From Rubellicoccus peritrichatus (lineage in GTDB: Bacteria > Verrucomicrobiota > Verrucomicrobiia > Opitutales > Cerasicoccaceae): a DNA stretch of 64,000 nt. A program made the position numbers and the translations under genes. The notes beneath the pieces are model-generated. The model was not told where the DNA came from. It ran no database searches and saw nothing but the letters and a program-made list of their open reading frames with translations. The stretch is from the NCBI RefSeq assembly GCF_033100135.1, contig NZ_CP136920.1:1-64000 (forward strand), given 5' to 3'. Below are positions 13,546 through 23,800 of this stretch, piece by piece. The stretch's first letter is position 1, and every line of letters starts with the position of its first letter.

Positions 13546-13580
13546 AAGGTAGCGGCCAGCGTCCCGCTGGCCGCTACCTT
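13546..13580. repeat. Perfect 16-bp hairpin
   Basis: AAGGTAGCGGCCAGCG (13546-13561) is followed by a 3-base loop and its perfect complement (13565-13580). It is GC-rich with no T-run and looks like a REP-type dispersed hairpin rather than a terminator. Confidence 0.7.
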
Positions 13581-13661: not shown

Positions 13662-13727
13662 GGGGCCTGAAGGGCTGACATAGTAAAAGCATTCAAGGAT
13701 ACAGGATATGTCAGCCCTTCAGGCCCC
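13662..13727. repeat. Perfect 21-bp hairpin
   Basis: The 21 bases at 13662-13682 (starting GGGGCCTGAAGGGCTGAC) are perfectly complementary to 13707-13727, with a 24-base AT-rich loop. It lies between rfaE2 and the small membrane-protein gene and has no T-run. It is of a different sequence family from the hairpin at 13546. Confidence 0.75.
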
Positions 13728-13740
13728 CATTGCTAAAAAA

Positions 13741-14040
13741 TTAAAATAAATCACGCGAATCACATCGCTTGGAAGTTTTACTTTTCTTCAAGCCAGCCAG
13801 GTGAAGGAACAAATCATACAATCCAGCATACTTGTAGTTCGGATCGGCATAATGCTCCATTACATAGAAACAGAAATAGTAAGCTCGGCAGAACGACCAA
13901 ATACAGAGAAAAAATAAAGCGATGACCTGCCACGAAATAACAGAGTAAAACAGAGCCAAAAGCAAACCCGCCGAAAGTCCACTGATCACCAGAAACAAGG
14001 CTGCTTTGATTTTCAATAATATTGGAGACTCAATATCCAT
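13741..14040 (-). CDS. Small membrane protein, unrecognised
   Basis: This 99-residue protein has two adjacent hydrophobic helices (about 10-32 and 35-58) and a basic C-terminal tail (KKSKTSKRCDSRDLF). The segment between (CRAYYFCFYVMEHYADPNYKYAG) is rich in aromatic residues. I recognise no family. Helix composition suggests a real gene, but no clear ribosome site precedes the ATG. The flanks are non-coding and repeat-rich, so it stands alone. Confidence 0.5.
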   Translation of the reverse strand: MDIESPILLKIKAALFLVISGLSAGLLLALFYSVISWQVIALFFLCIWSFCRAYYFCFYVMEHYADPNYKYAGLYDLFLHLAGLKKSKTSKRCDSRDLF

Positions 14041-14420
14041 GACTTAGTCGAAACGCTTATCATGATATAAATATCACTTAAAGGCAGCAGCCTCAGCATA
14101 TTCACATCACAATTCAAATTCACACAACAAATCAAAAATATCATTTATAAACACAATAGACTCACCAAAACAACAAAACCTTTGTTTACTAAACAACCCA
14201 ACAAACATAAGATACTCATCACAAGTAATTTATAATTTTTATGCAATTTCTATTGACGCCCCATTGAACCTCATCCATTCCTTGTCGCCTTTCCCATCCT
14301 ACAAAGAACCTAAACCCATTTTAAACATGTATTCATTTAGAACCAACAGCTTAGCCGGAGGCATCTGCCATGAGCGGCCTATGGCATCCATACCACAATC
14401 ACTCGGGAGCGATAATCCCA
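14041..14420. other. AT-rich non-coding stretch upstream of the structured RNA
   Basis: The first 200 bp are strongly AT-rich with no gene. A TTGACG at about 14253 could be a -35 element, but no good -10 lies 17 bases later. A small hairpin TGCCAT/ATGGCA occurs near 14368-14388. A 68-codon plus-strand frame (14264-14470) crosses the structured region and has no protein-like composition. Confidence 0.4.
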
Positions 14421-14529
14421 CTTGGGTTAAATCAAAACAGAACGAAGTGCACTTTAGGCACGACACTTAGGTAGTTCTAAAAACTTTGATTAAACCCAAG
14501 CAGCCAATGATCGGCACTTGGGTTTTTTT
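14421..14529 (+). ncRNA. Structured RNA with mutually exclusive terminator and antiterminator pairings
   Basis: There are three related segments. Segment 1 is CTTGGGTTAAATCAAA (14421-14436). Segment 2 is TTTGATTAAACCCAAG (14485-14500), complementary to segment 1 at 15 of 16 positions. Segment 3 is CTTGGGTTT (14517-14525), complementary to the end of segment 2 and followed by a T-run. Segment 2 can therefore pair with 1 or with 3. The nearest plus-strand gene is the tRNA about 300 bp on, so a cis-riboswitch for a protein gene is unlikely. A free small RNA is the more likely reading. No known RNA family was recognised. Confidence 0.5.
14492..14529 (+). terminator. Rho-independent terminator
   Basis: AAACCCAAG (14492-14500) pairs perfectly with CTTGGGTTT (14517-14525), with an inner GCC/GGC extension in the loop. 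The run of seven Ts spans 14523-14529. It ends a plus-strand transcript covering the structured RNA. Confidence 0.8.
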
Positions 14530-14826
14530 GTGCAATTCCGCCAACATTCTATCAGCGTCCCTTCTGCCGAACCAGAAGTGTAAAACGTCTTGTAAATGGC
14601 GCCCAAACCAAAAATTACATCATTTTGTGAGAGGGGCGGAGCCTGTCCTCAATAGTGGAATTTCACATGGCCGTATAGCCGCATTGATATAGCCAACTGC
14701 TTTAGAAACAGAAACCTGAAGGTTCGAATTTTTACATTTTCACTTCAACTTCCTATAACAATTATGGTCACTATCAAGCATACCATTTTGTTCAGGAAAA
14801 GAGGACCTAACTCCTGCCATCAAAAT

Positions 14827-14901
14827 GCAGCCATGATGTAATCGCCAGCATAGCGGACTTTTACTCCGCTTGTGAGGGTTTAAATCCCTCTGGCTGCACC
14901 A
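14827..14901 (+). tRNA. tRNA-Lys (anticodon UUU), atypical D and T loops
   Basis: A cloverleaf can be drawn with encoded CCA. The acceptor GCAGCCA/TGGCTGC has 7 perfect pairs, D-stem is ATGT/GCAT, anticodon stem GCGGA/TCCGC around loop CTTTTAC (anticodon TTT at 14860-14862), and T-stem GAGGG/CCCTC around loop TTTAAAT. U8-A14 and A15-U48 contacts are possible. Two near-invariant tertiary positions are changed: D-loop AATCGCCA has C in place of G19, and the T-loop has U in place of C56, so the G19-C56 contact is lost. It may be an unusual functional tRNA or a decaying copy. The stems are intact, which argues against advanced decay. Confidence 0.72.
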
Positions 14902-14948
14902 TTTCTTAGACAGTCTCTTAAACGCACACCAAGTAACCCTAACGACTT

Positions 14949-15024
14949 GGCGTTCCAAGCGAGCCGGAACGCCACTGACAATCGTCAGGAAATCCGGGGC
15001 TGGTCGGTCGTCCCGGCCAGCCCC
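14949..15024. repeat. Three consecutive hairpins after the tRNA gene
   Basis: GGCGTTCC/GGAACGCC (14949-14956 with 14966-14973), CTGAC/GTCAG (14975-14979 with 14984-14988) and GGGGCTGGTCGG/CCGGCCAGCCCC (14996-15007 with 15013-15024, one G-T pair) follow one another. No T-run is present on either strand. They lie between the tRNA and the sulfatase stop. Confidence 0.6.
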
Positions 15025-15096
15025 ACCTCTTTACTTAATAAGAATGCGAAGACAAGCCCACCATCATACTAGCAAACTATCAAGCAACGTAGATCA

Positions 15097-16707
15097 TCAT
15101 TTCACATGGACAACTGTGCTGGCCTCATCGCTATCTGCGTAGCCAATTCTTACCGCCTTGGTAATGACTTCATTGCGACCGGTCTTAAGCCTCAACGGCT
15201 CAGTATAGAGACGCCAGGAATCAGGCTCATCATCAGGAAACCTGTAGGCAACTGAAGCGCCTTCTGTTGGTGATTGTATCTGAAGGATAACCGGAGAATC
15301 ATATTCGATCGATGCATCGGCAAACTCAATCCCTGGGTGCTCCTCATTGATACATACGAAAACGGGAGCTACAGTCTGAGGCTGCTTCCCATCGGGATAC
15401 CAGCGCCGCACCATTTCCGCCTCGGGAATCTCTCCCATGTCACCAACATCGTTCAGCCACCGATCCATTTCCTTTTGCAACCTTTTCAGGTCATCTGCAA
15501 AAGCCGGATCCGCTGCCAGATTATTCAGTTCGTAAGGATCTGCTTCCGTATCGTAAAGTTCCTCCACTGAACGGACAGACTCAAACATGACTTGCTGAGT
15601 CTCATTTAATTCACCGTGCAAATGCAGTCGCCAAAGCTCCTGCATAATGGGATGCTGATTCAAGTAGTGCATCCATGGCAAACGGCTAAGATGAGGACAA
15701 TAATTACGAATATATTTAAACTTTTTGTCCCTCACTGCTCGAACCCGATCATAGCTCACGTCATGACGATCACGAGAGGCGTGAACATACTCCCTTGGTT
15801 CCGTCGCTTGCTTTGGCCCCAGAAAAGCCTGCCCCTGCATATGATAAGGGACCTCCAGACCAGCCAATGATAAAACCGTTGGAGCAAGATCAATCGTACT
15901 GACCAAATCATCGCTCACATTGTCAGGCGCAAGACTACCAGGCCAGCGCACAATCATCGGGACATGAATCCCGGAATCATAAGGCCAGCGTTTTCCCCGG
16001 GGCATCGGGCCATGGTCACTCCAATGAAAAATCACGGTATTCTCAGCAAGGCCGTCCTCCTCCAGTTGCTTTAAAAGCGTCCCAAGAATAGCATCATTGT
16101 TGGTGATGTGTGTATACATCCTGGCCATCGAATCACGAACCTTGGGTGTATCCGGAAAGTAAGGCGGTACGACCATATCTTCAGGATCATAAATCAGATC
16201 AATATGTTTTTTCTGCCACATCCCACTTTCATGTGAAGCTGCCAGATTGAACACTGAAAAGAATGGCTGGTCCGGATCTTTTCGATTACGCCAATGCGCA
16301 CTCAAGCTATGATCATCCCAGGCAGTCAGCGGAACATCGAACTGATAGTCAGTCTTAATATTGTTGGAACAATAGTAACCCGCAGCCCTGAGGTATTCCG
16401 GGAGACACTTAACATGCGCCGGAGTGACTGCCGAATATGGTGCAGGAAAATCCGGCAGCTCATGAGTGACCTGAGTTGTCCGCATATGATGTGTGCCAGC
16501 CGAAATCGCATACACTCCCGTGATGACGGCAAACCTTGCCGGGGCGCATACCCCCGCCGTAGAATAGGCACGCGGCCAACGGCAGCCATCAGTCGCAAGC
16601 TGATCCAAGTTGGGCGTACGCGCAACAGGATCACCATAGCAACCGTAGAAGGGATTGGTATCCTCAAAGGAAACCCACAGGATGTTTGGTCGTTTGGAAT
16701 CACTCAT
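15097..16707 (-). CDS. Sulfatase (formylglycine-dependent), cytosolic form
   Basis: The predicted role is hydrolysis of a sulfate ester, probably on a sulfated carbohydrate. I start the protein at the ATG at 16707 (MSDSKRPNILWVSFED), giving 536 residues; upstream codons of the open frame are not sulfatase-like. The formylglycine motif C-x-P-x-R is CAPAR with Cys54. Other family marks are EDTNPF near the N-terminus, HWSDHGPMPRGKRWPYDSGIHVPMI, and a C-terminal segment (about 460-536) resembling a chitobiase-type beta-sandwich add-on. There is no signal peptide, unusual for a polysaccharide sulfatase. No maturation enzyme gene or glycosidase is adjacent. Confidence 0.88.
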   Translation of the reverse strand: MSDSKRPNILWVSFEDTNPFYGCYGDPVARTPNLDQLATDGCRWPRAYSTAGVCAPARFAVITGVYAISAGTHHMRTTQVTHELPDFPAPYSAVTPAHVKCLPEYLRAAGYYCSNNIKTDYQFDVPLTAWDDHSLSAHWRNRKDPDQPFFSVFNLAASHESGMWQKKHIDLIYDPEDMVVPPYFPDTPKVRDSMARMYTHITNNDAILGTLLKQLEEDGLAENTVIFHWSDHGPMPRGKRWPYDSGIHVPMIVRWPGSLAPDNVSDDLVSTIDLAPTVLSLAGLEVPYHMQGQAFLGPKQATEPREYVHASRDRHDVSYDRVRAVRDKKFKYIRNYCPHLSRLPWMHYLNQHPIMQELWRLHLHGELNETQQVMFESVRSVEELYDTEADPYELNNLAADPAFADDLKRLQKEMDRWLNDVGDMGEIPEAEMVRRWYPDGKQPQTVAPVFVCINEEHPGIEFADASIEYDSPVILQIQSPTEGASVAYRFPDDEPDSWRLYTEPLRLKTGRNEVITKAVRIGYADSDEASTVVHVK

Positions 16708-17178
16708 AATGCTACTTTCGATAATCCTCATCAGTCCGAAGAAAATGGGCAAGGCAGAATGTCGAACACAATATTTCGTTGTGAGTGAACAAGATTTCGC
16801 TGTGAGTAAAGAGTATGCCATCACTTAGCATTTACTACTCAGCGCTCAGCATATCTAACTTGACTGTCAAAGAACGTTTACCGTCCGGCGATAAGTCTCG
16901 CGTAGAGTGCAACCTCCAGCTTTTGTTCGTCTAATCGTTTAAGACTTGAGCGGTCCCACACTTGCGCACCTGGGCAAGCGTGGCTGATTTTTCGGAACTA
17001 TAAAACAGCTCCTGCGACGACAGCCGAAAAACCACTCGTGGATAAGCTTCCAACACATCAACTCGGTCCCTGATTTAGATACTGAATCGAGTCCGATCCC
17101 GCCAAAGCAGAATCGAGTGACAAAAACCATTAATCACCATTCGTGTTTTCGGAAGCGCGACTATGGTGGACTAAAGGC
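16708..17178. other. Non-coding stretch upstream of the sulfatase gene
   Basis: No convincing gene. An inverted repeat has arms TTTTTCGG (16988-16995) and CCGAAAAA (17024-17031) with partly complementary flanks (GTGG/CCAC). A shorter CTTGC/GCAAG pair lies near 16961-16978. The sulfatase promoter should lie at the left end. Confidence 0.4.
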
Positions 17179-20880: not shown

Positions 20881-23800
20881 ATGATACCAATACTAAACAA
20901 AATAGGGAATCCCCTAAACATACGAAAACGGAGGGTCGGCGTCTTCATTGCACTGCTCGCAGTCAGTTGGAGCACGTCCCTTTTCAGTCAAACCACCACA
21001 GTGGGATCCGTTACATCGGCCACCACACAAATCGAATCCGGAAAGGAGAAGGCAGTATTCGGACTGAGCACGGGCGGCACTTGTGAAGTCATTCCATATG
21101 CACCTGATCTTATCCGCGTTAAATTTGACTGGGGTGGAATCGAAGCACACGAAGACATTGCCATCGACCGGCCACTGGCAAACTGGAGCGCTTTCCCGGT
21201 CACCTTCACCGATGGTGCGGTTTATACAATTGAAACCGATGAACTGATTGTTGAGGTAACCAAAAGCCCTAACATCAAGATCGACTTCAAGGACAAGACC
21301 CAGAGCAGTCAATATCTCCTGAAAGACAAACGTATGGAGTATGACACGGGTTATGATCCCTACAACGACAGCACATTCCAGCTGCTGAAAAACAGCAACG
21401 ATATCGCCTCGTGGTATCGCGTGCGTGTCGTTAAGGAAAGCCCCGCCAATGAGTCTTACTTTGGGTTGGGCGAAGTTCCCTTTCAATTGAATCGTCGCGG
21501 TCAGGTCGTTCAAGGATGGAACTCGGACTCATTCTTCTGGAATGATCAAAAGAACCCGATGTACATGACCATGCCTTTCATGTATGGTGTGCAAAGCCCG
21601 ACCGGAAACCATCCGGGGTTTGCTTATGGTCTGTTTTGGAATAACCCGTCGCGTCCTAATTTCATGTTCCAAAAGGAACGCCCTTTTGGTGGCGCTCAAC
21701 GCAATGCATTGAACACGGTTAACGATCAGTTCTCTTTCGAGGCAACTGAAGGTTATGTCGACTACTTCTTCTTCGGAGGCGGTGCAAACCACACTCCTTC
21801 AGAGGTCCTGACTCGTTATACCGAGCTGACCGGTATGCCAGCTTTGCCAGCCAAGTGGGCATTGGGGCATCACCTGTCACGCTGGACTTATACAGAAGAC
21901 CAGATGCGCAACATCGTGGCCACTGCGCGGAATCAAAACTATCCTCTCGACGCGATCTACTTCGACATCGATTACATGGATAGTGACCCACACATCGTGC
22001 CACCTGGAGGCACCTTCCAGGACAACGAATACCGCGGCAACAATGACATGCGTCAGTTGACCTTCCAGGATGATCCGAATAACCCGAACTACTGGTTCAA
22101 GGACGGAGTCAGTTTGATCAGCCACCTGCACGCAAACAATGTTAAAACCGTACCATTGATCGAGGCATGGCTCGCCACCGCCGATCCGCTCTGGACTGAG
22201 GCCAACAACCTGTCTCACTTCATTAAAAATAACAACGGCAGCGCATCCATTGCCTGGCTCTTCTTCGGTGATGTTTCCTATCTCGACTTCACCAGCACAG
22301 CAATGTCCGACTGGTGGAAGGCCAAACAAAAGAACTACCTGAATACCTACGCTTTCGATGGTATCTGGAATGACTTGAATGAGCAGGCTGATGAACGTGA
22401 CACCGTTCAGGATTCACAACCGATTCCCCTAAATGGTCTCTACTGGAATGATGGACGTTATGGCTCCAGCACAAACGACTATCGTCGCCAGCAGATGTAT
22501 ATGAAGAACACTTACAATGTTTATCAAGCTGCCAATACATATGATACACTTGCCGAACAGTATCCGAACACACGGCCGTTCGTGTTATCCCGTGCTGGGT
22601 GGCCCGGCATTCAGCGCTATGCATTCAACTGGAGTGGTGACAATGTAAACGAAAGCGCCGGTGGCGCCTACGGACAAGCCCCAAGCATAAGAGTTGGCTT
22701 GAGCACGATGATTTCCGGACAGGTCTTCTTCGGTCATGACCTTGGCGGATTCCTCGGCAGCGTCAGCAGCGAGTCGATGACCCGTTGGGCACAGTGGTGC
22801 AGTCTCATGCCTTTCTTCCGCAATCACTCAGGAAAATGGGATCAGCTACGCGAGCCATGGACTTACGCCAATGCCAATGAAATCAAGGAAGCGATCGAGT
22901 TCCGCTACGAGATCATGCCCTATTTCTATTCACTTGCTTATCGTGCATCAACAACTGGGCTTCCAATGAACAGTCCATTGTTCTTCTCTTACCCGAATGA
23001 TCCCCAGACACACACTGCGGGCAGCGATCTCGATTTCATGGTAGGACCATACATGCTCGCATCACCGATTCATCAGACTGGTTCAACGCAGCGCAGTACC
23101 TATCTGCCAAGCGGAACAAACTGGTATTACTGGCACGATGATTCCCTGCACACTGGTGGCTCAACTGTGGTTAAGTCCGCACCATTGAATGTGATTCCAC
23201 TCTATGTTCCGGAAGGCGCGATTGTTCCAACTGGACCCGTCTCACAATATGCCAACGAATTCAAACCACTGGAGCTGACCATCCACGCATGGCCAAGCGC
23301 AAACAGCACGAGCTTCACGCTCTATGAAGACGATGGCGAGACCTTCGATCACCAGTCCGGCGAGTATGCCATCACCGAATTGACGAATTCAATTTCAAAT
23401 GGCACCTGGACCTTCACGATCGGAGCCAAGCAAGGTACTTATGATCACGGACACACCTCGTACATGGTTGTACGCCATGCCATTGATGCACCGACATCCG
23501 TCCAGATCAACAGCCTCGCAGCAACTTCGTTCGGTAGCCTCGGTGCATTGCAGGGAGCAAGCTCCGGTTACTACTATGACAATAGTTCGCAGCAGCTCTA
23601 TGTAAAAACTGATGAAACGAACCAGGCCGTAACGATCACCGCAGGTGATAATTCAGCAAATCAGATAACAGTCTATTATATCACAGACTTCGCAAACCTC
23701 ATTCACTACGATGCAGGCATTGATGGCAGCTGGACTACGTTCCCGGGTGAAGCCCTGTCCAGCAGCGCATTCGCTGGCGTGAAGACATTCACCATCAATG

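What the first reader, a model, noticed from the sequence alone, without database searches (positions are those of the whole stretch)
14421..14529. Three-segment RNA switch-like structure without a downstream protein gene
Segment 14485-14500 can pair with 14421-14436 (15 of 16) or with the terminator arm at 14517-14525. This is antiterminator/terminator logic, but no plus-strand protein gene follows for over 6 kb. It may be a free small RNA (a 6S-like or unknown class) or a remnant leader. An additional AAACCCA near 14310 could also pair with the terminator arm.
Basis: partly seen in the sequence, partly recalled or inferred. Interest (0 to 1): 0.5.

Follow-up and report, generated by a model that had tools for sequence, protein, structure and literature searches.

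The report
Orphan bistable terminator before tRNA-Lys
A short stretch of this bacterial genome can, as RNA, fold either into a stop signal for transcription or into a helix that cancels it; no relatives were found and its role is untested, so it is a mildly interesting candidate regulatory RNA and not a demonstrated new switch.

Summary
Arm 14485-14500 pairs 15 of 16 with 14421-14436; its last nine bases also pair with 14517-14525, an intrinsic-terminator arm running into a T-tract (14523-14529). Chance does not explain it: 0 of 300 shuffles had such an arrangement, and 0 of 5000 shuffled upstreams reached 15 of 16. Of 21 terminator-like hairpins in the window, this one is least likely to form at equilibrium in a 110-nt transcript (P 0.014). 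The two states have similar energies (-30.6 against -29.2 kcal/mol).

A plus-strand gene does follow: an extra, unusual tRNA-Lys(UUU) at 14827-14901, with a promoter-like site of its own. 6S RNA is unlikely: the genome's 6S is elsewhere. No relative turned up in up to 372 genomes of the order, so compensatory changes cannot be tested.

Most likely it ends a lineage-specific short transcript (sRNA, or small mRNA with a doubtful 34-aa ORF), its terminator competing with an upstream helix. Gating of the tRNA-Lys is the boldest reading not excluded. There is no expression evidence. Interest is low to moderate.

The parts
14231..14236 (+). TATAAT, candidate -10 element without a good -35 (a start near 14243, inferred, would give a transcript of nearly 290 nt)
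   Evidence: relaxed scan, 9 of 12 matches, no shuffle control; the stricter scan found no promoter in 14040-15100, 0 against a mean of 1.9 in shuffles; weak
14301..14318 (+). upstream segment that can pair with the terminator's 3' arm (third competitor)
   Evidence: pair probability 0.97-0.98 in transcripts from 14250 or 14300 to 14532, lower (0.28, 0.45) from 14250 to 14560 or 14600; MFE of 14300-14532
14357..14474 (+). GGAGG (14357-14361) and a possible 34-aa ORF (14370-14474) whose stop lies in the loop of the long hairpin
   Evidence: 39 of 3000 shuffles of 14041-14531 show a comparable SD+ORF; codon use not coding-like; doubtful
14421..14436 (+). 5' arm of the competing helix P1 (antiterminator-like)
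   Evidence: 15 of 16 pairs with 14485-14500
14485..14500 (+). shared middle arm; 14492-14500 is also the 5' arm of the terminator
14503..14515 (+). small GCC/GGC hairpin forming the upper part of the terminator
   Evidence: present in the folds of both states
14517..14529 (+). 3' arm of the terminator (14517-14525) and T-run (14523-14529)
   Evidence: terminator-forced fold -29.2 kcal/mol for 14415-14532; isolated hairpin 14490-14532 -15.6 kcal/mol
14731..14759 (+). promoter-like TTTACA-17-TATAAC upstream of the tRNA
   Evidence: 10 of 12 matches in a relaxed scan without shuffle control; consensus match only, not in the stock scan
14827..14901 (+). extra tRNA-Lys(UUU) with encoded CCA and unusual D and T loops
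   Evidence: ARAGORN, Rfam tRNA 62.1 bits; canonical tRNA-Lys(UUU) at 2321651 and tRNA-Lys(CUU) at 5591610

Best explanation
A lineage-specific, plus-strand short transcription unit, either a regulatory RNA or a very small mRNA, begins somewhere in 14040-14420 and ends at the intrinsic terminator 14492-14529. Its terminator is bistable: the upstream strand 14421-14436 forms the helix P1 with 14485-14500 as soon as that arm is made, and the terminator can only form by displacing the outer 8-9 pairs of P1, because CACTTGGGTT is present twice. Termination and 3'-end formation should therefore depend on what happens to P1 (speed of transcription, a bound factor, or a ribosome on a leader ORF). Shown by sequence and in silico: the mutually exclusive pairings, their non-randomness and their similar energies. 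Inferred: that the region is transcribed, and that the competition is used for regulation.
For: Exact three-segment pairing and 10-nt direct repeat; chance tests 0 of 300 and 0 of 5000; P1 state -30.6 and terminator state -29.2 kcal/mol, with the inner seven pairs of P1 kept in both; saddle 9 to 12 kcal/mol above the P1 start states; P(terminator) 0.014 in a 110-nt transcript, against 0.89 or more for 18 of 21 terminator-like sites in the window; seven T's in a row; position in an intergenic stretch between a leftward gene with relatives (13741-14040) and the tRNA, about 1 kb from the rfaE2-like gene, which has its own inverted repeat at 13546-13580, also picked up as a terminator-like site at 13548-13578.
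Against: No transcript data. No homologue in 54 relatives or 372 genomes of the order by DNA, nor by a covariance model, so there is no evidence of selection on either helix. No convincing promoter. 14243-14531 as a whole is not unusually stable (z -0.69, 48 of 200 shuffles at least as stable), although 14300-14532 (z -3.02, 2 of 200) and 14415-14532 (z -2.65, 3 of 200) are. In a 290-nt context two other terminator-like sites of the 21 also have P below 0.03. The balance shifts with the ends chosen: for 14400-14560 the terminator pairing prevails (0.65 against 0.35).
Confidence: 0.5

Rival explanations
1. Decayed or fortuitous structure: a former attenuator/leader or simple inverted repeats in fast-evolving intergenic DNA, with no present function.
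For: No relatives in the collections searched; behind rfaE2 in nine other family members there is no similar DNA and no tRNA in the 3-kb loci scanned; no promoter in the strict scan.
Against: Both helices are almost perfect (15 of 16 and 9 of 9) with an intact T-run; decay would be expected to break them; chance is disfavoured by shuffles.
Confidence: 0.27
2. Transcription attenuator that gates readthrough into the tRNA-Lys(UUU) gene that starts 298 bases downstream of 14529.
For: The tRNA is the next recognised gene on the same strand; by equilibrium folding the antiterminator state prevails in most of the transcript lengths tried.
Against: A promoter-like TTTACA-17-TATAAC sits between terminator and tRNA, so readthrough need not be required; no aptamer or T-box match in Rfam.
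Confidence: 0.12
3. Ribosome-controlled attenuator or small-protein gene: a 34-aa ORF (14370-14474) with a GGAGG ends in the loop of P1; a ribosome on its middle codons would cover 14421-14436 and let the terminator form, whereas stalling at the early WHPYHNH codons would let P1 form (inference).
For: ORF and SD-like GGAGG eight bases before ATG; 39 of 3000 shuffles of 14041-14531 and 65 of 3000 of 14243-14531 have a comparable SD+ORF.
Against: Codon use of the ORF is not coding-like (-0.36 bits per codon on its own composition, against +0.10 to +0.28 for the 8 longest frames scored the same way; -0.18 on the region's composition); 5 of 27 long frames in the window show an SD core near a start in their first 80 codons; no biosynthetic gene downstream; no match of the peptide in plasmids; read by eye, TGCCAT/ATGGCA could put the start codon in a stem.
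Confidence: 0.11

Closest known systems
Transcription attenuators and riboswitch expression platforms (antiterminator/terminator; recalled)
   Same: Three segments, the middle one shared by two mutually exclusive helices, the second an intrinsic terminator.
   Different: No recognised aptamer or T-box, no regulated protein gene downstream, no homologues found.
Liberated attenuator sRNAs such as rnTrpL of Sinorhizobium meliloti (rnTrpL itself recalled; for PMC7298713 the search listing and start of abstract were seen)
   Same: A short terminated transcript with a possible leader ORF that could act by itself.
   Different: No amino-acid biosynthesis operon follows; the ORF is weakly supported.
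6S RNA (RF00013)
   Same: Long imperfect hairpin in a free RNA (superficial).
   Different: No Rfam 6S match here; the genome's 6S RNA is at 1740761-1740940.

Membership tests
Intrinsic (Rho-independent) terminator | G+C-containing hairpin directly followed by a T-run | tested here: met
   14492-14525, T-run 14523-14529; the loop is too long for the stock scan, which reported none
Antiterminator/terminator attenuator | upstream segment that pairs with the terminator's 5' arm, exclusive with the terminator | tested here: met
Antiterminator/terminator attenuator | regulated gene downstream in the same transcript | tested here: inconclusive
   only a tRNA-Lys with a promoter-like site of its own follows
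Antiterminator/terminator attenuator | covariation or conservation of both helices | tested here: inconclusive
   no homologue found by DNA or covariance model
Known riboswitch/T-box class in Rfam | covariance-model match at gathering score | tested here: not met
   only the tRNA matches; sub-threshold hits such as atoC, 22.9 bits against 50
6S RNA | RF00013 match at this locus | tested here: not met
   no match here; found at 1740761
Ribosome-mediated attenuator | translated leader peptide overlapping the switch | tested here: inconclusive
   34-aa ORF with GGAGG but atypical codon use
Small regulatory RNA | discrete transcript | not testable with these tools
   no expression data available

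The most novel reading that the evidence does not exclude
A protein-free genetic switch in which a bistable terminator gates transcription into a second, non-canonical tRNA-Lys(UUU) gene, so that supply of an extra lysine tRNA is controlled by RNA folding.
Probability: 0.08. Interest if true: 0.6.

Novelty: new member of a known kind. Interest (0 to 1): 0.27.

Why it matters
If transcribed and switchable, it would be an orphan attenuator outside the Rfam classes in the Verrucomicrobiota, and possibly a case of RNA-controlled tRNA supply. If not, it shows how a convincing three-segment fold can stand without any comparative support.

Tried and rejected
6S RNA: rejected because a 6S gene lies elsewhere in this genome, as also found in each of the 9 other family genomes searched. 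Known Rfam classes: only the tRNA passes; the sub-threshold hits at the element (MIR5269, atoC, NsiR1) are far below their cut-offs and reflect a long hairpin or a terminator.

Homologues: DNA 14220-14560 in 54 genomes (own only); 14300-14535 in the 10 family genomes at E up to 10 and in 372 genomes of the order (in the rows shown at most two candidates per genome were scored). Three foreign matches of 19-25 bases were read by eye: none has the competing 16-nt arm with the terminator. Covariance model R1, built from the window sequence alone: three weak foreign matches of 17.8-20.2 bits against 156.3 for self, in 372 genomes with strict filters. One search searched R1 in 25 sources (9 of the 80 loci among them): the same three, self, and self on the other strand (20.0 bits); I judged the three to be chance. 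The other 71 loci were not examined. The leftward 99-aa gene has matches in four other genomes of 87 (the G005 match holds a stop codon); the three clear ones show no such RNA beside them (read, R1 search); the fourth, weak one (L198) was not inspected. No match in phages or plasmids or, for two structure patterns, in viral contigs.

Repeat element: the own genome gave one copy at E up to 0.001; at E up to 10 11 matches, the best other one 26 bases long. A pattern for the terminator's upper part with two mismatches gave 18 places in the own genome, the element included, against 4 for the reversed control; these were not read one by one. One search read 13 places (1 own, 12 foreign); by eye none has the three-segment structure, though a few are ordinary terminators.

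tRNA-Lys: a generic pattern gave 53 places and missed the canonical gene; one place was fetched and holds no tRNA. The Rfam tRNA search then found it (150 of 269 candidates scored).

Literature: searches list papers on attenuators, riboswitches and ncRNA searches; only listings and starts of abstracts were seen, none was opened, and none names this element in what was seen. One search tested a guess at the organism's name (recalled) and settled nothing.

Full report
What is there. 14421-14436 and 14485-14500 form 15 of 16 Watson-Crick pairs. 14492-14500 also pairs perfectly with 14517-14525, and the 3' arm runs into seven T's at 14523-14529, three of them in the arm. Seen as DNA, CACTTGGGTT occurs twice, 96 bases apart, and both copies compete for the one AAACCCAAG between them.

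Is it chance? In 5000 dinucleotide shuffles of the 100 bases upstream of the shared arm, no partner reached 15 of 16; the best was 14, once. In 300 shuffles of 14041-15097, 6 had a terminator-like hairpin and none had one with a competing arm of 14 of 16 or better. Among 21 terminator-like sites on both strands of the window (some inverted repeats are counted on both strands), this is the only one with a competitor of 12 of 16 or better. Its hairpin forms with P 0.014 in a 110-nt transcript, whereas 18 of the 21 reach 0.89 or more; the other two low ones are 0.67 and 0.222. In a 290-nt context this site has 0.016, and two other sites also fall below 0.03. A 16-nt inverted repeat of this quality by itself is not rare: there are 7 places in the window. 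The unusual point is its overlap with a terminator.

Energetics. For 14415-14532 the best fold contains the long helix (-30.6 kcal/mol). The best fold with the terminator forced is -29.2 and keeps the inner seven pairs of the long helix. Without four outer pairs that borrow the terminator's 3' arm, the long-helix state is -27.6, that is, less stable than the terminator state. A direct path between the states climbs 9 to 12 kcal/mol. So the terminator must displace the outer 8-9 pairs of a helix that was made earlier; which state wins within the time that RNA polymerase spends on the T-run is a kinetic question that these tools cannot settle. The equilibrium also depends on the ends chosen: P1 prevails in most transcripts tried, but for 14400-14560 the terminator does (0.65). 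Stability against shuffles depends on the stretch: z -3.02 for 14300-14532, -2.65 for 14415-14532, but -0.69 for 14243-14531.

Surroundings. Upstream on the plus strand are grpE-, dnaJ- and rfaE2-like genes (named by resemblance, from memory), the last followed by inverted repeats at 13546-13580 and 13662-13727. A leftward 99-aa gene (13741-14040) has clear relatives in three other genomes of 87 searched (one with a stop codon inside the match) and one weak match, so it looks like a real gene; no Pfam model passes its cut-off for it. Upstream of that tRNA is TTTACA-17-TATAAC, 10 of 12 matches in a relaxed scan without a shuffle control; the stock scan requires a final T and reported no promoter in the region. 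Upstream of the element there is only a TATAAT without a good -35. The next plausible plus-strand protein gene of 80 aa or more starts at 20881, and a sulfatase-like gene (Pfam PF00884) runs leftward at 15097-16824.

The tRNA. The genome search gave 40 tRNA matches (150 of 269 candidates scored). ARAGORN names a canonical tRNA-Lys(UUU) at 2321651 and a tRNA-Lys(CUU) at 5591610. The window's copy is an extra one with D loop AATCGCCA and T loop TTTAAAT, where the canonical copy has a GG-bearing D loop and TTCGAGT (loops assigned by eye). Loss of the D-loop/T-loop contact is an inference from recalled tRNA structure.

Is it translated? A 34-aa ORF (14370-14474) starts eight bases after GGAGG and stops in the loop of the long hairpin. 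39 of 3000 shuffles of 14041-14531, and 65 of 3000 of 14243-14531, contain a comparable SD plus ORF. Its codon use scores -0.36 bits per codon on its own composition, against +0.10 to +0.28 for the 8 longest frames of the window scored the same way (-0.18 on the region's composition), and 5 of 27 long frames show an SD core near a start in their first 80 codons. An overlapping frame (47 aa from ATG at 14327, 68 aa from TTG) has no evident SD; the 47-aa peptide had three foreign matches, E 0.04-0.08, in 177 genomes. Translation is possible but poorly supported.

Relatives. None was found for the element: 1 of 54 genomes (own) by DNA; in 372 genomes of the order only three short matches that I read as chance; a covariance model built from this single sequence found itself and three matches of 17.8-20.2 bits. 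In nine other members of the family the 11-kb loci around and behind rfaE2 hold no similar DNA (one 23-base match at E 0.47), and the 3-kb loci around rfaE2 hold no tRNA (the 11-kb loci were not scanned for tRNAs). Nothing was found in phages, plasmids or, for two patterns, viral contigs.

Verdict. It is a real and non-random bistable terminator of unknown output. It works like an attenuator in geometry. It meets the terminator and competing-helix criteria, fails the 6S test, matches no Rfam class at its threshold, and is inconclusive on regulated gene, covariation and leader peptide. Most likely it ends a lineage-specific short RNA. Its novelty is that of a new member of a known kind, with interest about 0.27.

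Noticed in passing
14827-14901 (+): Extra tRNA-Lys(UUU) with encoded CCA but atypical D loop and T loop (TTTAAAT), beside a canonical tRNA-Lys(UUU) elsewhere in the genome; the stretch 14800-14930 has no DNA match at E up to 0.001 in nine other family genomes.
   Followed up: partly
L242 positions 61-130, genome position 1680657-1680726: A low-scoring tRNA match (40.3 bits) that ARAGORN gives an unassigned four-base anticodon; it is not among the matches at gathering threshold.
   Followed up: partly
14100-14399: Strongly G-poor plus strand (GC skew -0.51, GC 36%), a 300-base stretch between the leftward gene and the element.
   Followed up: no
13741-14040 (-): Small probable membrane protein (99 aa, hydrophobic stretches by eye) with scattered relatives in the order in other gene neighbourhoods.
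   Followed up: partly
13662-13727: Perfect 21-nt inverted repeat with a 24-nt loop between the rfaE2-like gene and the leftward gene.
   Followed up: no
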